From Bacteroidaceae bacterium (GTDB taxonomy: Bacteria > Bacteroidota > Bacteroidia > Bacteroidales > Bacteroidaceae): a DNA stretch of 44,829 nt. Under the pieces are notes generated by a model. The model was given only the letters and a program-made list of their open reading frames with translations, did no database searches and was not told the origin of the DNA. This document shows positions 1 through 9,673 of the stretch, piece by piece. Made by a program: the position numbers and the translations under genes. The DNA is taken from contig JAFXVZ010000039.1 of the NCBI GenBank assembly GCA_017534535.1, positions 1 through 44,829 on the forward strand, written 5' to 3'. How positions within the stretch are numbered: the stretch's first letter is position 1; each line of letters starts with the position of its first letter.

Positions 1-529
1 GTTCTTGTTGCTGTTGCTGTTGTTGCTCTTGCTGTTGTTTTTCTTGTTGCTGTTGCTGCTGGTTGTTGTCACCACCCTGCTGTTCCTGGTCTTTTAACAA
101 TTTCTGGCAGAGTGCCAAGTTATAACGTGTCTCGTGGTCACGAGGATTGTTCCGAAGAGACTCCTTATAAGCCTCGATGGCTTGCTGGTAATGCTTAGCA
201 GCCTGGTGAATGACACCTGTGTTGTGATACACCGCTGCCAATTTGTTCTTATCATGTTCCATCTTCGAGGCAGCCTCATATTCCTTCAATGCTTCCTGCG
301 GCTTGTTCTGGAAAAGCAGGGAGTTACCCAAGTTATACCTAGCCATGCCTGACGTAGGATTGACCTCTTGTGCCTTTCGGTAATTCACCTCTGCATCCAC
401 AAACACGCTGTCGTGGTACTGCCTGTTTCCCTTGCGGATATAGTCACGCTCAGCCTTTTGAGCCCAACCATTTGCCACGCCCAGCGTCAATGTTGCAAAG
501 AGCAGATATTTTAGTCGTTGTGTTTTCAT
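1..529 (-). CDS. batC: BatC-like TPR protein (partial, C-terminus off window)
   Basis: Reading from the ATG at 529 gives a signal-peptide-like N-terminus (MKTQRLKYLLFATLTLG...) followed by tetratricopeptide repeats (motifs such as ARYNLGNSLLFQNKPQEAL and a second unit around HYQQAIEAYKESL), then a long glutamine/glutamate tract that runs into the window edge. TPR proteins of this kind sit after batB in the Bacteroides aerotolerance operon and are thought to act in the periplasm with the VWA proteins. The start codon overlaps the batB stop as ATGA (526-529), a sign of translational coupling. The poly-Gln part is coded by mixed CAA/CAG repeats. The 3' end is missing, so total length and any further domain are unknown. 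Confidence 0.85.
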   Translation of the reverse strand, partial: MKTQRLKYLLFATLTLGVANGWAQKAERDYIRKGNRQYHDSVFVDAEVNYRKAQEVNPTSGMARYNLGNSLLFQNKPQEALKEYEAASKMEHDKNKLAAVYHNTGVIHQAAKHYQQAIEAYKESLRNNPRDHETRYNLALCQKLLKDQEQQGGDNNQQQQQQEKQQQEQQQQQQQE

Positions 530-1548
530 TTTTCAAATAAATGTATTTTGTTGAACAAAGGGTTCTGTCGTTCCATGATCAACAGTTCGATAATGAGCAA
601 TAGCAACAATATCCATGCTACTGCCTGGAACTGCTCGTTATAATCAGAATAAACCTGCGTCTCTATGTCAGCTTTCGCCAATTTATCGATGGCTTGCTGA
701 ATAGCACGTTGTGCAGTATTGGTATTATCCACCCTCACATACACGCCGTTACCTGCTTTTGCCAAGTCTTGGCACATCTGCTCATTGAGCTTGGTGACCA
801 CAATATTACCATCCTTATCCCTTCGGAAATCCCTGGAATCCTCCATCGGTATGGGTGAGCCTTCAGGAGAACCAATACCCAGTACATTGATTTGGATATC
901 CTTGTCCGTCAATGATTTGATAGCTTGGTCAACGCCTCCTTCGTGGTTCTCACCGTCCGTGATGAGAATGATGGTACGCCCCACCCCATCTTGTGGCGTG
1001 AAACTACGGTTTGCCAAAGTCAACGCTGCTCCTAAGTCGGTACCCTGCTTGGTTATCAAGGCAGGAGTGATGGACTCCAAGAACATTTTAGCGGAGATAT
1101 AGTCGCTGGTGATAGGCAACTGTGTGAAGGCATCGCCGGCAAAGACGATGAGCCCCACCTTGTCTTGCTCCATCTTATCCACTAACTGAGAAATCAGTCG
1201 TTTGGCCTTCTCTAAACGACTGGGTTGTATGTCTTGTGCCAGCATAGAGTTGGATATATCAAGAGCAATGATTACTTCCACACCTTGACGCTTTACCGTT
1301 TCCAGCTTGGATCCGAATTGCGGTCGAGCCAACAAAACAGCAAATAAGGCAATACAACCCAAAATGAGGGCAAACTTGATATCCGGACGACGTTTCGAAA
1401 CATCTGGCATAAGTGATGCCATCAATTCTGGATCGCCAAACTCACGGATGGCCTTGCGGCGTCGGAAGTTTGAATATAGGTAAAAAGCTACCAATACCGG
1501 AAGCAAAAGCAGCAGGTACAAGTAAGCCGGGTCTTCAAATCTGAACAT
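526..1548 (-). CDS. batB: BatB, VWA-domain membrane protein
   Basis: 340 residues. Two N-terminal hydrophobic segments (about 8-26 and 58-76) precede a von Willebrand factor A domain whose MIDAS motif DISNS lies at about 97-101; further metal-site elements follow (FAGDAFTQLP, ITDGENHEGG). A third transmembrane segment lies near 310-330, so the VWA domain is predicted on the periplasmic side, anchored at both ends. Bat proteins were described in Bacteroides fragilis as needed for aerotolerance; the molecular role is still unclear, probably complex assembly with the MoxR ATPase. It lies 25 bp after batA and overlaps batC by 4 bp, so it is part of one transcription unit. Confidence 0.92.
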   Translation of the reverse strand: MFRFEDPAYLYLLLLLPVLVAFYLYSNFRRRKAIREFGDPELMASLMPDVSKRRPDIKFALILGCIALFAVLLARPQFGSKLETVKRQGVEVIIALDISNSMLAQDIQPSRLEKAKRLISQLVDKMEQDKVGLIVFAGDAFTQLPITSDYISAKMFLESITPALITKQGTDLGAALTLANRSFTPQDGVGRTIILITDGENHEGGVDQAIKSLTDKDIQINVLGIGSPEGSPIPMEDSRDFRRDKDGNIVVTKLNEQMCQDLAKAGNGVYVRVDNTNTAQRAIQQAIDKLAKADIETQVYSDYNEQFQAVAWILLLLLIIELLIMERQNPLFNKIHLFEK

Positions 1549-1573
1549 ATATTACTATCCTCCTAAATAATTA

Positions 1574-2557
1574 TTAAGGAATCTTTTTCAATAACGTGTT
1601 GCGCAGCAGCACCTCCAGCAGGATGCACAGGAAAGCCGCCAGGGCAAACCACTCATATTTCTCATCACGCTTGCTGAACTGACGAACGTTGAGCTTGGTC
1701 TTCTCCAGTTTGTCAATCTCCTGATATACCTCCTCGAGTTTCGAGTTACTGGTGGCACGGAAATAGTTGCCTTGTGTGGTGCTGGCAATTTCGCTAAGCG
1801 TCTTCTCATCAATCTCCACTGGTAGGTTCACATATTGTACGGTGCCTGCCACCTGATAAGGATAGGGAGCCATGCCGTTTGTACCCACGCCAATAGTATA
1901 AACCCTAATACCGAAGCTTTTAGCTATCTCAGCAGCTGTCAATGGGGAGATTTCGCCACGGTTGTTGGTTCCATCCGTCAGCATAATCACCACCTTCGAC
2001 TTTGCCTTGCTGTCTTTCAGTCGGCTTACGGCATTAGCGATACCCATGCCTACAGCCGTACCATCTTCTATCAAACCGCAATTCACGTCCTTGATAAGAT
2101 TCAAAAGCACGGAATGATCTACCGTCAGCGGGCATTGCGTAAAGCTTTCGCCAGCAAAAAGCGTGATGCCAATGTTATCGTTAGGACGACCGTTTATGAA
2201 CTCAGCAGCCACTTGCTTGGCAGCCTCCAAGCGATTGGGTTTTAAATCTTCTGCCAACATACTGGTAGATACGTCTATAGCTAGCATAATGTCAATTCCT
2301 TCTATTTCACTGTTCTGCCAACTATTGGTAGTTTGTGGCCTTGCCAATACCATAATTAGCAGCGCCAGTGCCAGTATCCTAAGGATGAAAGGTGCATGGA
2401 TGAGGTAGTTCTTGTAACTTTTGGGTGCATAGGTATAAACGGTGGTATCAGACACTTGCAATGAAGCATCTGACTTCTTTCTGCTGAGTACATAACCTAC
2501 AATCAAGGGTATAAGCAGCAGCAATAAAAACAGATATCCACTATCAGCAAAAACCAT
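1574..2557 (-). CDS. batA: BatA, VWA-domain membrane protein
   Basis: 327 residues with the same architecture as its neighbour BatB: N-terminal membrane segments at about 8-25 and 55-73, a VWA domain with intact MIDAS DVSTS at 95-99 and the downstream LFAGESFTQCP and LTDGTNNRGE elements, and a C-terminal membrane segment near 302-320. BatA and BatB are paralogs, presumably an old tandem duplication. Position between the DUF58/membrane genes and batB matches the Bacteroides aerotolerance operon. Nine bp separate it from the upstream gene, so co-transcription is very likely. The exact substrate of the VWA domain is not known. Confidence 0.92.
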   Translation of the reverse strand: MVFADSGYLFLLLLLIPLIVGYVLSRKKSDASLQVSDTTVYTYAPKSYKNYLIHAPFILRILALALLIMVLARPQTTNSWQNSEIEGIDIMLAIDVSTSMLAEDLKPNRLEAAKQVAAEFINGRPNDNIGITLFAGESFTQCPLTVDHSVLLNLIKDVNCGLIEDGTAVGMGIANAVSRLKDSKAKSKVVIMLTDGTNNRGEISPLTAAEIAKSFGIRVYTIGVGTNGMAPYPYQVAGTVQYVNLPVEIDEKTLSEIASTTQGNYFRATSNSKLEEVYQEIDKLEKTKLNVRQFSKRDEKYEWFALAAFLCILLEVLLRNTLLKKIP

Positions 2558-2566
2558 ATCCTATCC

Positions 2567-3637
2567 TCATGCTAAGTTGTTATACAACTCCATTCCTATA
2601 TATACCAATGCGCCAATCAGGTATATCGAGATGGCAGCGATGCCTATGCCCAAGAGCACCTTAGTGCGTAAAGGGCGCTTCTCAATGATAGTGATTTCTG
2701 TAGGTGAAGGCTTGGCATTGGGGTCTTCCTCTTCCTTGGTATCGTTGATGAACTTCACTGCATTCAACAAGTTAGCATCGTTTTCGTTCATCATTGGGAT
2801 AAACTTTGCAAACTTCACCAAATCGGCTGTCTTAAGCAAGTCCTTCAACTCTCGTAAAGCATCTGCATCGTCCACACGCTCCAACTTGTCGATAATCTCA
2901 TCAGTTGTCATTTCCAACGCCTTGAAGCCAAAGCGCTTTTCTATGTAGGAACGCAGGGTATCGGTAAGTTGTGTGTAATACTCTTTCGAGAGTCCATGTT
3001 GCCAAACCTTCTCATTTTTGATTCGCTCAATCTCCTGCATAGCCAACTGATGAGGTGGCAACTGAGGTTCAACCTTTACTTTCCGGATGATTGGCTGGTT
3101 GTCACGTATGCGTTTGATCAGGTACAATAACAAGAAAAGTGCTGGTATCCAGAGGATGGCACAGGCGATGACACCATACCAGTCAGCCCATACAAAAGGT
3201 GGCTTCATCACGTCTTTCGGGCCAAAGAACTGATCTGGATGAAGAGTATCTACTGGCATAGAGAAAACCTTTAGTGCCAAAGGATTGGATTTATATACTT
3301 CATCCTCTACTTTAACCTCCATAGGAGGCAAGTAATACAATGCCGAGTCGAAGGAAGTGATGGTATAAACCTCCTTGACAAGCATGCGCTTGTTGTCGTT
3401 GAGGTATTGAGTGTCTGGTTTGGCCACATCTAACACCTCAACGCCCCTAACCAAGGTGTCGGGATATGCTGGAAGTATCAATCGTTTGTCAGCATCAAGA
3501 GATACTTGTAAGCTAATGTGCGCCTGTTCGCCTATCATCAGCTCCAAGGAGTCGATAGATGCCTCTACTGATACCTGAGCTATGGTTGGCAACAGACAGC
3601 CCATCATGTATGTTAATAAAACTAACAGTCTTTTCAT
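2567..3637 (-). CDS. Bat-operon membrane protein, conserved in Bacteroidetes
   Basis: 356 residues. A signal peptide (about 1-20, ending near TIAQ) is followed by a periplasmic beta-rich segment, a transmembrane helix near 155-175 (VIACAILWIPALFLLLYL), a cytoplasmic helical region and a last membrane helix near 330-350. The second half carries a helical motif (Y.QLTDTLRSYIEKRFG...EMTTDEII) typical of the conserved protein encoded between DUF58 and batA. Two membrane spans around a soluble domain suggest a scaffold joining the periplasmic VWA proteins to the cytoplasmic MoxR/DUF58 pair; this is inference from order and topology. Gaps to its neighbours are 11 and 9 bp. Confidence 0.82.
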   Translation of the reverse strand: MKRLLVLLTYMMGCLLPTIAQVSVEASIDSLELMIGEQAHISLQVSLDADKRLILPAYPDTLVRGVEVLDVAKPDTQYLNDNKRMLVKEVYTITSFDSALYYLPPMEVKVEDEVYKSNPLALKVFSMPVDTLHPDQFFGPKDVMKPPFVWADWYGVIACAILWIPALFLLLYLIKRIRDNQPIIRKVKVEPQLPPHQLAMQEIERIKNEKVWQHGLSKEYYTQLTDTLRSYIEKRFGFKALEMTTDEIIDKLERVDDADALRELKDLLKTADLVKFAKFIPMMNENDANLLNAVKFINDTKEEEDPNAKPSPTEITIIEKRPLRTKVLLGIGIAAISIYLIGALVYIGMELYNNLA

Positions 3638-3648
3638 TATTCTTATAC

Positions 3649-4518
3649 TTAATTCCTTTGAGCGAACAAACTCATCAGGGATTTCACATAGTCTTGGTCA
3701 GTGCGTATGGATACGCTATCCACGTTGCTCTTCTGGAACACATCTGCCAAAGCAGTTTTCTGGGCTATCCACCAGTCGTGATGTGCCTTACGCACAGCCT
3801 TCGATGAGGTGTCAATCCATTGTCCCACACCTGTTTCCGCATCTTTTACACGCATCAATCCCACTGCTGGTAACTCCTCCAGTCGTCTATCATATACCTG
3901 CACAGCCACCACGTCGTGCTTTTGGTTGGCAATGGTCATGGCACCTTTGAAGTCCTTGCGGTCGATGAAGTCAGATAGGATAAATGCAGTACATCTACGT
4001 TTCATCACATTGGTAAGGTATTGCAAACCCACACCAATGTCAGTCATACGGCTCTCAGGATGGAAGTCTATTAACTCCCTGATAATATACAGGATATGTT
4101 TTCTGCCTTTCTTAGGAGGGATGAACTTCTCTATCTTATCAGAGAAAAAGATGACGCCAATCTTATCGTTGTTCTGCATGGCAGAGAAAGCCAATGTGGC
4201 TGCAATCTCAGTTACCATGTCTTTCTTCATCTGCTTGACGGTACCAAAATCCAGACTTCCGGAAACATCAACCAGCAACATCACTGTAAGTTCGCGTTCT
4301 TCTTCATACACCTTTACGTAGGGCTTGTGGAATCGTGCAGTCACATTCCAGTCGATGTCACGGATATCATCACCGTACTGATACTCGCGAACCTCAGAGA
4401 ATGCCATACCCCTACCCTTGAAAGCTGAGTGATACTCACCTGCAAAGATATTGTTAGACAAGCCCTTGGTCTTGATCTCAATACGTCTGACGCGCTTTAA
4501 TAATTCTGTCGTTTCCAT
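3649..4518 (-). CDS. DUF58 domain protein (MoxR partner)
   Basis: 289 residues, no signal peptide or membrane span, so cytoplasmic. It carries the DUF58 signature around residues 46-62 (EYQYGDDIRDIDWNVTAR) and a VWA-like fold with DVSGS at 84-88. DUF58 proteins are almost always coded next to a MoxR ATPase and are thought to be its adaptor or client. Here the gene follows moxR by 18 bp and precedes the Bat membrane genes, which fits a MoxR-DUF58-VWA chaperone-like module. Many DUF58 proteins have N-terminal membrane helices; this one does not, the usual short Bacteroidetes form. Confidence 0.9.
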   Translation of the reverse strand: METTELLKRVRRIEIKTKGLSNNIFAGEYHSAFKGRGMAFSEVREYQYGDDIRDIDWNVTARFHKPYVKVYEEERELTVMLLVDVSGSLDFGTVKQMKKDMVTEIAATLAFSAMQNNDKIGVIFFSDKIEKFIPPKKGRKHILYIIRELIDFHPESRMTDIGVGLQYLTNVMKRRCTAFILSDFIDRKDFKGAMTIANQKHDVVAVQVYDRRLEELPAVGLMRVKDAETGVGQWIDTSSKAVRKAHHDWWIAQKTALADVFQKSNVDSVSIRTDQDYVKSLMSLFAQRN

Positions 4519-4536
4519 GAGCTGAACAACTAATTA

Positions 4537-5532
4537 TCAAGGCACTTTCACTTCATCCAGTATCATACTTACAATCTCGTCAGCAGTAAGGTTACTTGCC
4601 TCTGCCTCATAAGAAAGGCCGATGCGGTGACGCATCACGTCGTGTGCCACAGCACGTACGTCTTCTGGAATGAGATAGCCACGATGCTTGATGTAAGCAT
4701 AGCTACGCGCAGCTAAAGCAAGGTTAATGGAAGCTCGAGGCGAGCCTCCAAAGCTCAACATACCTTTCAGCTTATCGAGACCATACTGCTCTGGATAGCG
4801 GGAAGCGAAAACAATGTCAAGGATGTATTGCTCAATTTTCTCATCGATATAAACCTCACGCACCAGCTTACGAGCTTCGATGATTTCATCAGCGGTCAGC
4901 ACTGGCAGTACCTTTACCTTGTCTCCATTAATATTCTGACGGATAATCAGTTTCTCTTCATCCAGCTTTGGATAATCAATCACCACCTTCAGCATAAAAC
5001 GATCAACCTGTGCCTCAGGCAACTGGTAAGTTCCCTCCTGCTCAATGGGGTTTTGTGTAGCCAGCACTAGGAATGGCTCTGGCAACTTGAACGTCTGACT
5101 ACCAATGGTTACCTGACGCTCCTGCATAGCTTCGAGCAGGGCACTTTGCACTTTAGCAGGGGCACGGTTTATTTCATCTGCCAAAACGAAGTTGGCAAAC
5201 ACAGGACCTTGCTTTACTTGGAACACCTCGTCTTTTTGGCTATAAACCATCGTGCCAATTACATCGGCAGGCAATAAGTCGGGAGTAAATTGAATACGAC
5301 TGTATTTTGCGTCAATCAACGATGCTAGTGTTTTGATGGCCAATGTCTTTGCCAAACCAGGTACACCTTCGAGGAGTACATGGCCGTCAGACAATAAACC
5401 AATCAACAACGATTCGATGAGGTGCTTCTGCCCCACAATCGTTTGGTTCATACCAGTAGTAAGATGAGTAATAAAAGTACTTTTGCTCTCAATCCGCTCA
5501 TTCAGTTCGCGGATATTAATTGAATCTGCCAT
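4537..5532 (-). CDS. moxR: MoxR-family AAA+ ATPase
   Basis: 331 residues, the normal family length. The Walker A motif GVPGLAKT is at 56-63, Walker B VLADEINR near 116-123, and the sensor/arginine region with ATQNPIEQEGTYQLPEAQ and DRFM follows. MoxR ATPases use ATP hydrolysis to mature or assemble protein complexes, typically with VWA partners. It is the first gene of the six-gene Bat cluster seen here. Only 33 bp separate it from the HU-LysM gene upstream on the same strand, and no TAnnTTTG box is obvious in that gap, so it may be transcribed from further upstream. Confidence 0.95.
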   Translation of the reverse strand: MADSINIRELNERIESKSTFITHLTTGMNQTIVGQKHLIESLLIGLLSDGHVLLEGVPGLAKTLAIKTLASLIDAKYSRIQFTPDLLPADVIGTMVYSQKDEVFQVKQGPVFANFVLADEINRAPAKVQSALLEAMQERQVTIGSQTFKLPEPFLVLATQNPIEQEGTYQLPEAQVDRFMLKVVIDYPKLDEEKLIIRQNINGDKVKVLPVLTADEIIEARKLVREVYIDEKIEQYILDIVFASRYPEQYGLDKLKGMLSFGGSPRASINLALAARSYAYIKHRGYLIPEDVRAVAHDVMRHRIGLSYEAEASNLTADEIVSMILDEVKVP

Positions 5533-5565: not shown

Positions 5566-6996
5566 TTATTTCTTCACAAGTTTGGGTATTCTGATAATGG
5601 TGCCTACAGGCACATTGTCTTGGTCTTTGATTACATCTTTGTTATAGCTTACAATGTAAGTATAAAGCCTGCTAACGCCATAGTATTTTCTGGCAATAGC
5701 GTTAAGTGTTTCACCTTTCTGCAAGGTATGAGTGGCTAATTCTCCATCTGTTACATAAGCAACACCTTCTTCCAACCTGGGATACCCCTCATTAGTTGTT
5801 GTTTGAGTAGCAGCAGGAGTTGTTTGAGGTGTTGGAGCAGCTTGCTCTTTAGCTGTAACGGGTGTGTCAACAGGTGTATCAGGTGTGTTTTCAGGCTGAT
5901 TGACAACTGCTTGCTCAGTTACTTGTCCTGCTTGAGACATATTCTCTACAGGTTGTGTTCCTTCAGAAGATGTTTCCGTTGGTTGTACAGGATTGAGGGG
6001 CTCATGCACACGTACTGGCTTGGTTCCCTCCTGTTTGGCTATGTCTGGGTAATATAGATAGGCAACTGCACCCAAGCAGAGCATGATGACCAATACGGCA
6101 ATGAACATCAAGTATGGAGTCGAGGAGCCTTCTGCCTTTTTGGAGATTTCCCGGCGTTTTTCATCTGAAATACGCAAAGCTTTGACCTCCTCCTGATGGC
6201 TCACTGGTTGGTCTCTTTTCTTGATTTCATCATCATCGAATATTGGCAATATCTTGACGGATTGTTCTTCGGCAACAGGCTCTTCTACAGCAGCTTGTTC
6301 TTTAATGATAGAGCCCTCTGCAACAGGTTCTTCAATTGAAGAAGGTTTCTCTTCTACTACAGGAGTAATATCTTCAACGATAGATTCCTCAACAACAGAT
6401 TCTGGTTCTTCTGTAACAGACTCCTCCTTTACAATAGATTCCTCTGAAACAGGAACTTCCCCTTCAACAATAGGTGTCGGCTCCTCTGCAACAGGTTCTC
6501 CAGCATTTGGTTCTTCTTTTGTAGCTGGTACTTCTTCTATTTCAGAAGCAGGCTTTTCAACAACAGGTCCTGCTACCATAGGTTCCACCATCACAGAATC
6601 CTCAGTCACCACTTCTTCTGTTTCAATATCGGCATCAGTATCGCCAATCACCTCAGGAGTATCAATCTCCACGCCATCAGCCAAAACCACAGTTTCAAAA
6701 GCAGAAAACGGCTTGTTCACTACCTCTTTCAGCGAATTATCTGGAGTAAAGGAAATTTTTGAATGGCCTTGAATTTCAATTCGTTCGCCTGTGTTGACAT
6801 TGATGCTTTCGCGACTATCCACATCAATAAGCTTGAAAGTACCAAGACCCTTCACTTTTACGTATTTGTCTTTTTCAAGGGCTTCTTCAATAAGCGAGAA
6901 GAAATCTTTGACAAATGATTCTGCATTTTTCTTGCTTAACCCGTGGGTTTCAGCCAGTTCTTCAGTCAGATTCTGTATGTTCAGTTTTTCGTTCAT
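5566..6996 (-). CDS. HU-like DNA-binding domain fused through a membrane helix to LysM
   Basis: 476 residues in four parts. Residues 1-100 are an HU/IHF-like DNA-binding domain (VKVKGLGTFKLIDVDSRES, then INVNTGERI and ISFTPDNSLKE). Residues 105-250 are an acidic low-complexity region of repeated V-x-E-E-P units. Residues 295-317 are a hydrophobic helix (YLMFIAVLVIMLCLGAVAYL) preceded by basic residues RREISKK, which favours the N-terminus inside the cell. A Pro/Thr/Gln-rich linker leads to a LysM domain at about 422-473 (HTLQKGETLNAIARKYYG). As seen, this would place a nucleoid-binding domain in the cytoplasm and a peptidoglycan-binding domain in the periplasm. It starts 12 bp after the HU paralog. 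Function is inferred from domains only. Confidence 0.88.
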   Translation of the reverse strand: MNEKLNIQNLTEELAETHGLSKKNAESFVKDFFSLIEEALEKDKYVKVKGLGTFKLIDVDSRESINVNTGERIEIQGHSKISFTPDNSLKEVVNKPFSAFETVVLADGVEIDTPEVIGDTDADIETEEVVTEDSVMVEPMVAGPVVEKPASEIEEVPATKEEPNAGEPVAEEPTPIVEGEVPVSEESIVKEESVTEEPESVVEESIVEDITPVVEEKPSSIEEPVAEGSIIKEQAAVEEPVAEEQSVKILPIFDDDEIKKRDQPVSHQEEVKALRISDEKRREISKKAEGSSTPYLMFIAVLVIMLCLGAVAYLYYPDIAKQEGTKPVRVHEPLNPVQPTETSSEGTQPVENMSQAGQVTEQAVVNQPENTPDTPVDTPVTAKEQAAPTPQTTPAATQTTTNEGYPRLEEGVAYVTDGELATHTLQKGETLNAIARKYYGVSRLYTYIVSYNKDVIKDQDNVPVGTIIRIPKLVKK

Positions 6997-7008
6997 CGTT
7001 GTTTATCT

Positions 7009-7281
7009 CTATTTGAATTTATCTTTCAATACATTGCTTGGTCTAAACGTCAGCACCAACTTAGGAGGTACCAGCAGACGTTGCTTGGTAACGGGATTGA
7101 CAGATATGCGTTCCAGCTTTTTCTTGATTTCAAAAGAACCAAAATTTTGGATTACGATACTGTCATTGTTCTGCCACTGTTCCGTCATAACCTCAACCAA
7201 ACTGAGTATCATGTCAGTGGCATCTCGGGTTGTATAACCTCCCCTGCGAGACAATTCTGCTATAAATTCCTTGTTGTTCAC
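7009..7281 (-). CDS. HU-family DNA-binding protein
   Basis: 90 residues, the standard HU/IHF length. The helical dimerisation half (FIAELSRRGGYTTRDATDM) is followed by the beta-arm part (IVIQNFGSFEIKKKLERIS, NPVTKQRLLVPPK, LTFRPSNVLKDKF). The start codon is GTG at 7281; no in-frame ATG lies close upstream and the protein begins where family members normally do. It is followed after 12 bp by the HU-TM-LysM gene, whose N-terminal domain is paralogous, so the pair may have arisen by duplication and could form heterodimers (inference). It sits 83 bp after rimO on the same strand and may belong to the ftsY-rimO transcription unit. Confidence 0.9.
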   Translation of the reverse strand: MNNKEFIAELSRRGGYTTRDATDMILSLVEVMTEQWQNNDSIVIQNFGSFEIKKKLERISVNPVTKQRLLVPPKLVLTFRPSNVLKDKFK

Positions 7282-7364: not shown

Positions 7365-8663
7365 TCATAAAACGCGCCCAAAAAGGTCGTAATCTTCGGC
7401 TGAAGTAATCTCAATCGTGCAAAAATCACCAATTTGAAGGGACTTTTCAGGTTTAGTAATGAGCACTTCTGGATCCACCTCAGGGGAGTCAAATTCAGTG
7501 CGTCCCACATAGTAATCAACCTCCTCTCTGTCGATCATCACCTTCAAAACCTGCTCCACTTTTGCTTGATGCAAGGTGGCGGAAATCTCTTGCTGAATAG
7601 CCATCAACTCATCCAATCTGCGTTGTTTCACCTCAGGTGAAATGTCGTCTTTGTAATGCTGAGCAGAATAGGTGCCTTCCTCCTCTGAGTAAGCAAAAGC
7701 TCCCATTCTATCGAATTTCATATCGCGTACAAACTGTTTGAGCTCCTCAAAATCAGCCTCTGTTTCGCCTGGATGTCCCACCATAAGGGTGGTACGGATG
7801 TGTATCCCTGGCACCTCACGACGCATGGTTTCAATCAGTTGGTAAGTATCTGCTTTGGTAACATGTCGATGCATCAGCTCCAACATATGATCGCTGATGT
7901 GTTGCAAAGCTATATCCATATACTTACAAATGTTGGGATGTTTACGCATCACTTCCAACAGCTCCAATGGGAAATGCGATGGGTAAGCATAATGGAGCCT
8001 GATCCACTCTACGCCAGGAACTTGGGCAATCTTGTCGATTAGCTCGGCTATCATCTGCTTCTGATAGAGATCGATGCCATAATATGTGAGTTCCTGGGCT
8101 ATGACCTGAAACTCTTTTACACCTTGCTCAACCAAATTCTTCACCTCTGCCAGGATGTCTTCCATAGGGCGAGAGTGATGCGGTCCCGTGATGATGGGAA
8201 TAGCACAATATGAGCAATGCCTGTCGCATCCCTCGGAAATCTTCAGGTAAGCATAATGCTTGGGTGTAGTAAGCATGCGTTCTCCACAATGCTCTAAGTT
8301 AGTGGCATAGCCCAAATCTTGTATTAGGGAAGGCCAATCGAACTTGCCATAAAACTTATCTACCTCTGGTATCTCTTGTTGTAGTTCTTCTCTATATCTT
8401 TGTGACAGACAACCCATCACATAGAGCTTAGAAAGTCTGCCCTCTTGCTTGGCCTGTACAAAGTCAAGTATCATATTGATAGACTCCTCTTTGGCATCAC
8501 CAATGAAACCACAGGTATTGATGACTGCAATCTTAGCATTAGGTTTTTCTGGTTCGTGCTTGGGATTAAAGCCAGCAGCACGGAGCATACCCATCAGTCG
8601 TTCAGAATCCACCAGGTTCTTCGAGCAACCTAAGGTAATGATGTCGATGTCTTTCCTTCTCAT
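7365..8663 (-). CDS. rimO: RimO, ribosomal protein S12 methylthiotransferase
   Basis: 432 residues. The N-terminal methylthiotransferase domain has its three cluster cysteines at C13 (TLGCSKN), C51 (NTCGF) and C85 (VMGCLSQR). The radical-SAM motif CxxxCxxC is C146-C150-C153 (EGCDRHCSYCAIP). A TRAM-like domain forms the C-terminus and ends in the typical DLFGRVL. The CSKNLVDSE start distinguishes RimO from the tRNA enzyme MiaB. The enzyme adds a methylthio group to an aspartate of S12. Its ATG overlaps the ftsY stop as ATGA (8660-8663), so the two are translationally coupled; this ftsY-rimO order is common in Bacteroidetes. Confidence 0.96.
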   Translation of the reverse strand: MRRKDIDIITLGCSKNLVDSERLMGMLRAAGFNPKHEPEKPNAKIAVINTCGFIGDAKEESINMILDFVQAKQEGRLSKLYVMGCLSQRYREELQQEIPEVDKFYGKFDWPSLIQDLGYATNLEHCGERMLTTPKHYAYLKISEGCDRHCSYCAIPIITGPHHSRPMEDILAEVKNLVEQGVKEFQVIAQELTYYGIDLYQKQMIAELIDKIAQVPGVEWIRLHYAYPSHFPLELLEVMRKHPNICKYMDIALQHISDHMLELMHRHVTKADTYQLIETMRREVPGIHIRTTLMVGHPGETEADFEELKQFVRDMKFDRMGAFAYSEEEGTYSAQHYKDDISPEVKQRRLDELMAIQQEISATLHQAKVEQVLKVMIDREEVDYYVGRTEFDSPEVDPEVLITKPEKSLQIGDFCTIEITSAEDYDLFGRVL

Positions 8664-9641: not shown

Positions 9642-9673
9642 CAAAGATAACACTTTTTGTGTACATAAACAAA
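9642..9673 (-). promoter_or_regulatory. ftsY promoter, Bacteroidetes type
   Basis: On the minus strand TTTG (9673-9670) and TATCTTTG (9649-9642) are separated by 20 nt, matching the -33/-7 consensus TTTG-N19..21-TAnnTTTG. The -33 element is cut out of the T-tract of the terminator that ends the ribosomal-protein operon, so the two signals share bases. Confidence 0.85.

What the first reader, a model, noticed from the sequence alone, without database searches (positions are those of the whole stretch)
5566..7281. HU domain joined through a membrane helix to LysM: possible nucleoid-to-cell-wall tether
One 476-residue chain has an HU/IHF-like DNA-binding domain, a 150-residue acidic spacer, a membrane helix with basic residues on the N-terminal side and a C-terminal LysM domain. 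Topology predicts DNA binding inside and peptidoglycan binding outside. A normal HU paralog is coded 12 bp upstream and may dimerise with it. The domains are read directly; tethering is inference.
Basis: partly seen in the sequence, partly recalled or inferred. Interest (0 to 1): 0.75.

Follow-up and report, generated by a model that had tools for sequence, protein, structure and literature searches.

The report
Wall-anchored subunit of DNA-bending pair
Many gut and related bacteria carry two neighbouring genes for a pair of DNA-bending-type proteins, one of which is built to run through the inner membrane and grip the cell wall, so the pair may fasten the chromosome to the wall; the pairing is well supported by genome comparison, but the fastening has not been tested.

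Summary
Window 5566-6996 (-) encodes a 476-aa chain (HUL): HU/IHF domain, acidic disordered linker, one membrane helix, second linker, LysM. Of 138 distinct relatives collected, 131 have a detectable LysM and 136 a membrane helix. (1) The 90-aa HU gene upstream (HU2) is adjacent in 136 of 138 and fused into the same chain in 2; all 38 of 295 order-level genomes with a strong HU2 match also match the HUL profile. (2) The two HU domains differ: in 103 non-redundant HUL the DNA-intercalating proline position is never proline, while HU2 has it in 100 of 101 and is basic. This is not universal: 11 distant HUL keep it, and 6 of 138 HU2 lack it. (3) A read-through model of both domains matches single-chain IHF over both halves. 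Best reading: an IHF-like heterodimer in which HU2 mainly supplies DNA binding and HUL the membrane and wall anchor. Tethering is inference. A related architecture (CCDC81-type HU, SPOR) is in the same genome. New variant of a known kind.

The parts
5566..6996 (-). HU-TM-LysM protein (called HUL here), 476 aa
   Evidence: 138 distinct relatives
6706..6996 (-). HU/IHF-like domain, residues 1-97; closest solved chains by sequence are single-chain IHF and IHF alpha
   Evidence: PF00216 80.2 bits; 2iie_A E 2.4e-15, 1ihf_A E 1.8e-11
6769..6825 (-). beta-arm of the HUL domain (residues 58-76): Val where IHF alpha has the intercalating Pro; under 15 residues or unalignable in 5 of 138 relatives
6682..6717 (-). 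conserved tail motif after helix 3, residues 94-105; N94 and P96 unchanged in 103 of 103
6127..6681 (-). acidic, predicted disordered cytoplasmic linker, about residues 106-290 (low-confidence helix 267-287)
   Evidence: 29% D/E, pLDDT mostly below 60
6052..6120 (-). membrane helix, residues 293-315
5758..6051 (-). periplasmic-side linker, residues 316-413
5584..5730 (-). LysM domain, residues 423-471
   Evidence: PF01476 21.2 bits, cut-off 20.9; pLDDT 95-97
7009..7281 (-). HU2: 90-aa HU/IHF-family protein, proposed DNA-binding partner
   Evidence: PF00216 78.7 bits; adjacent in 136 of 138 relatives, fused in 2
7365..8663 (-). upstream gene that I call rimO from its sequence (name recalled, no profile run); a homologue is upstream in 80 of 80 named loci
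9642..9673 (-). Bacteroidales-type promoter-like site (TTTG-N-TAnnTTTG; consensus recalled). It lies inside the TTG-started ftsY-like ORF as listed, some 20 bases before an in-frame ATG; the only match on this strand between 9673 and HUL

Best explanation
The two genes encode one complex: an IHF-like heterodimer whose HU2 subunit carries the working DNA-clamping arm and whose HUL subunit carries a divergent arm, an acidic flexible cytoplasmic leash, one membrane helix and a periplasmic LysM that grips peptidoglycan. HU2 recruits DNA to HUL, so the complex holds nucleoid DNA near the inner membrane and ties it to the wall. Shown by sequence and comparison: domains, constant pairing, two natural fusions, arm asymmetry in the main group. 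Predicted only: topology and the heterodimer fold. Inferred: DNA binding by the complex, peptidoglycan binding, and tethering as the physiological role.
Confidence: 0.57

Rival explanations
1. Membrane-bound regulator: the pair binds specific promoters at the membrane, and LysM senses the state of the wall, so the output is gene expression and not mechanical attachment.
For: IHF-like heterodimers are classical architectural regulators (recalled). MoxR, DUF58 and BatA-like genes, which look envelope-related (recalled), lie downstream in 67, 65 and 63 of 80 named loci.
Against: No sensor or effector domain beyond LysM was found; the linker is long and predicted disordered, better suited to a leash; the upstream genes look like housekeeping (rimO and ftsY homologues in 80 of 80).
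Confidence: 0.18
2. RodZ-like role: the HU fold inside is used for protein contacts, coupling cytoplasmic machinery to the wall, with no DNA binding in vivo.
For: The own genome (89% complete) has no match to the RodZ-type HTH_25 domain; of 14 control genomes 13 have one, the missing one being, by comparison with the list, the Bacteroides. Doublet-microtubule chains appear among the best structural rows (8snb, 8v3l, 8g2z, 9e2g; that some are CCDC81-type HU proteins is recalled), so HU-type folds can serve as protein adaptors. HUL has a near-neutral domain, and three pairs have no intercalating proline in either chain.
Against: HU2 keeps a strongly basic arm with the intercalating proline in 100 of 101 of the main group, which is hard to explain without DNA.
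Confidence: 0.15
3. Ordinary nucleoid protein with a membrane-targeted paralogue of little importance.
For: The genome has other HU-family genes (8 PF00216 places in all, including these two).
Against: Pairing in 138 of 138 relatives and a profile match in 135 of 151 family genomes.
Confidence: 0.07

Closest known systems
IHF / HU (DNABII family) heterodimers
   Same: PF00216 in both chains; two different subunits; HUL is closest to IHF alpha and single-chain IHF by sequence; the read-through model matches single-chain IHF across both halves.
   Different: One subunit carries a linker, membrane helix and LysM; its arm lacks the intercalating proline in the main group.
CCDC81-type HU - helix - SPOR proteins of Bacteroidota (Pfam PF18175; a chromosome-partition role was proposed by Burroughs et al. 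2017: recalled, paper not held)
   Same: HU-type domain, one hydrophobic stretch, peptidoglycan-binding domain; one is encoded in this same genome at G000:C4.
   Different: HUL is under the PF18175 cut-off (19.2 and 21.7 of 35 bits), has LysM in place of SPOR and a constant HU2 partner. PF18175 is over its cut-off in 229 of 295 order genomes; the HUL profile matches in 47 of 295.
HubP of Vibrio cholerae (PMC8789113, passages read)
   Same: Periplasmic LysM, single membrane helix, highly acidic cytosolic region; acts on the position of the chromosome 1 origin through ParA1.
   Different: No HU domain is named in the passages; LysM stands before, not after, the cytosolic part (order recalled); it has a C-terminal TPR region.
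Noc (PMC8429893, start of abstract seen)
   Same: Binds DNA sites and membrane.
   Different: A CTPase with CTP-regulated membrane binding; no wall-binding domain is mentioned in what I saw.

Membership tests
HU/IHF (PF00216) | Profile match over the curated cut-off in both chains | tested here: met
   80.2 and 78.7 bits, cut-off 22.4
HU/IHF (PF00216) | DNA-contacting arm with intercalating proline (role recalled) | tested here: inconclusive
   HU2: P in 100 of 101; HUL: P in 0 of 103. In the wider set of 138: HUL tip P in 11, HU2 P in 132
HU/IHF (PF00216) | DNA binding and bending | not testable with these tools
   needs biochemistry
IHF-type heterodimer | Two co-occurring, non-identical subunits | tested here: met
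   136 of 138 adjacent, 2 of 138 fused; 38 of 38 genomes
IHF-type heterodimer | Intertwined dimer fold | tested here: inconclusive
   [not shown]
IHF subunit alpha (NCBIfam equivalog) | Score over the equivalog cut-off | tested here: not met
   59.8 (HUL) and 55.1 (HU2) of 111 bits
LysM | Profile match over the curated cut-off | tested here: met
   21.2 of 20.9 bits, narrowly; domain fold supported
LysM | Peptidoglycan binding | not testable with these tools
   needs pull-down
CCDC81-type HU (PF18175) | Score over the curated cut-off | tested here: not met
   19.2 of 35 bits
RodZ | HTH_25 cytoplasmic domain | tested here: not met
   no match in the own genome
HubP/FimV | Periplasmic LysM, one helix, acidic cytosolic region (as in PMC8789113) | tested here: met
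   predicted only; works-like, not membership
HubP/FimV | Sequence relatedness and C-terminal TPR region | not tested
   no HubP profile search was run

The most novel reading that the evidence does not exclude
A dedicated two-subunit DNA clamp physically fixes the chromosome of Bacteroidales and some other members of their phylum to the peptidoglycan: HU2 bends and holds DNA, HUL is its wall-anchored partner, and together with the SPOR-type HU protein it forms a second, independent nucleoid-to-wall link.
Probability: 0.38. Interest if true: 0.82.

Novelty: new variant of a known kind. Interest (0 to 1): 0.62.

Why it matters
A direct protein link from DNA across the membrane to the cell wall would give a simple, testable answer to how the nucleoid is positioned in Bacteroidales. 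The finding names two genes, a predicted complex and separable parts to mutate (HU2 arm, helix, LysM) in common gut commensals. It also shows an unusual path of HU/IHF evolution: one subunit of a pair with a changed, and in a few lineages lost, DNA arm and an envelope anchor, and occasional fusion of both subunits in one chain.

Tried and rejected
Partial mirror-tree of HU2 against HUL, controlled for rimO and ftsY, gave 0.28 (0 of 2000 permutations as high), but HU2-LysM gave 0.35 (0 of 2000) and HUL-LysM 0.07 (361 of 2000); 68 loci were used after dropping near-identical ones from 77. I take it as uninformative. RodZ membership rejected: HTH_25 absent from an 89%-complete genome. Membership in CCDC81-type HU rejected on score. 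Ten paper searches ran; I saw no paper on an HU-LysM protein in their listings (searches found nothing; one search listed 15 of 56 and 12 of 13). The library holds open-licence papers only, and Burroughs et al. 2017 is not held. The P. vulgatus fitness paper PMC13114119 (passages) mentions LysM once, for another protein. A co-variation analysis of the dimer interface was not attempted: too few sequences and no model coordinates in the script box. Domain thresholds in the scripts were mine. The set of 103/101 came from loci L001-L132, before the distant L139-L162 were fetched. One search lists 12 HUL arms with an xP; in L121 the Pro is not at the tip, so I count 11. On checking I lowered the main confidence from 0.60 to 0.57, and the bold one from 0.40 to 0.38, because three of the five arm-less HUL have HU2 without the proline.

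Full report

Topology. Among 114 non-redundant HUL chains, 113 have a 19-residue window of mean hydropathy over 1.6 beyond the HU domain (the other has 1.53); one (L122) has a second such window. K/R in the 25 residues before the helix average 4.1 and after it 2.6; the count is larger before in 78, equal in 15 and smaller in 21. This supports HU inside and LysM outside, though not in every member taken alone.

Distribution. In the same family 135 of 151 genomes and 27 of 30 genera match the HUL profile at E 1e-12. In the order 47 of 295 do, three of them only in the helix-LysM part. In the phylum 67 of 395 match at E 1e-10; by my reading of the table 38 of these are in one unnamed family outside the class (f142), where full-length matches occur, and others are HU-only or LysM-only hits.

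Pairing. Of 138 distinct HUL proteins collected, 136 have HU2 directly upstream on the same strand, with gaps of -29 to +59 nt, and the remaining 2 carry HU2 in the same chain. The two fusions, L149 (361 aa) and L155 (403 aa), come from different families; each was seen in one genome, and 7 of 7 fetched genomes of L149's genus have separate genes. In the order sample 38 of 295 genomes have an HU2 match over 80 bits and all 38 match the HUL profile; the three other genomes that passed the E-value limit (G244, G397, G449) score 69-70 bits, like second HU paralogues elsewhere. Of the nine HUL-profile genomes without such an HU2 match, three match only in the helix-LysM part and were not fetched; six were fetched: five have a divergent adjacent HU2 (G220, G312, G318, G329, G405) and one is the fusion L155 (G402). 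In the 80 named loci, rimO and ftsY homologues lie upstream in 80 and MoxR downstream in 67, some loci being cut by contig ends (gene names are mine, from sequence). The only Bacteroidales-type promoter match on this strand between 9673 and the pair lies at the start of the ftsY-like gene, so one transcript is plausible but not shown.

Division of labour. Against IHF alpha numbering, 103 non-redundant HUL domains have Val (87), Ile (15) or Glu (1) where IHF has the intercalating Pro65; R55 is replaced by I, V, L or M in at least 95 and K57 by V, M or I in 102; R60 is kept in 102. HU2 keeps Pro in 100 of 101, K/R at the R55, D56 and K57 positions in 100, 101 and 101 of 101, and R60 in 100. Mean net charge is -0.7 for HUL(1-95) and +5.8 for HU2(1-90). 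The role of these IHF residues in DNA contact is recalled. In the wider set of 138, five HUL have an arm under 15 residues or unalignable (L149, L154, L155, L156, L158) and no HU2 does; relatives of L149 in the same genus show stages of HUL arm decay.

Against a simple story. The HUL arm is about as conserved as the neighbouring strands in most members. Eleven HUL (L142-L148 from f142, L150-L153 from the order) keep an Asn-Pro arm tip, with an xP in 9 of their 11 HU2. Six of 138 HU2 lack the proline, and in three of the five arm-less HUL (L154, L155, L158) the partner HU2 lacks it too, so those pairs have none. I read this as a pair that began with two DNA arms, in which HUL's arm changed role in the main group and was lost in a few lineages; that history is inference, no tree was built.

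Comparison with known systems. The same genome encodes a CCDC81-type HU and SPOR protein, the architecture for which, as I recall, Burroughs et al. (2017) proposed a chromosome-partition role; that paper is not held. HubP of Vibrio cholerae has a periplasmic LysM, one helix and an acidic cytosolic region, and acts on the chromosome 1 origin through ParA1 (PMC8789113, passages). HUL resembles these in plan; it fails the PF18175 score test, and HubP membership was not tested. What is new here, as far as the searches made show, is the constant second subunit, the arm asymmetry and the fusions.

Conclusion. A conserved two-subunit, IHF-like pair with one envelope-anchored member is well supported as a genetic unit (about 0.85 that they form a complex, my estimate), and moderately as a DNA-to-wall tether (0.57).

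Noticed in passing
L138 (G000:C4:11000-14500), frame from 856, 437 aa: A second HU and peptidoglycan-binding chain in the same genome: CCDC81-type HU with a hydrophobic stretch and a SPOR domain. PF18175 is over cut-off in 229 of 295 order genomes.
   Followed up: partly
window 6682-6717, residues 94-105 of HUL: A tail motif just after the HU fold (NKPFxxFExVxL) is among the most conserved parts of HUL and is recognisable by eye in distant relatives; its function is unknown.
   Followed up: partly
L156-L159, L161 (same genus as L149): Stages of decay of the HUL arm within one genus, including an acidic version (L161) and near-complete loss (L156, L158); HU2 arms keep their length, though L158 lacks the proline.
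   Followed up: partly
window 526-5532: A run of envelope-type genes (MoxR ATPase, DUF58, BatA-like membrane proteins; names recalled) lies downstream on the same strand, 33 bp after HUL.
   Followed up: no
L151 (G405:C141): The HU part of HUL and its LysM part lie in two overlapping frames, probably a frameshift or assembly error.
   Followed up: no
L055 (DBWZ01000033.1): A contig titled Pseudobutyrivibrio, a Firmicute by name, carries the Bacteroidales-type locus with near-identical neighbours; probably a mis-binned metagenome contig.
   Followed up: no
[not shown]
   Followed up: no
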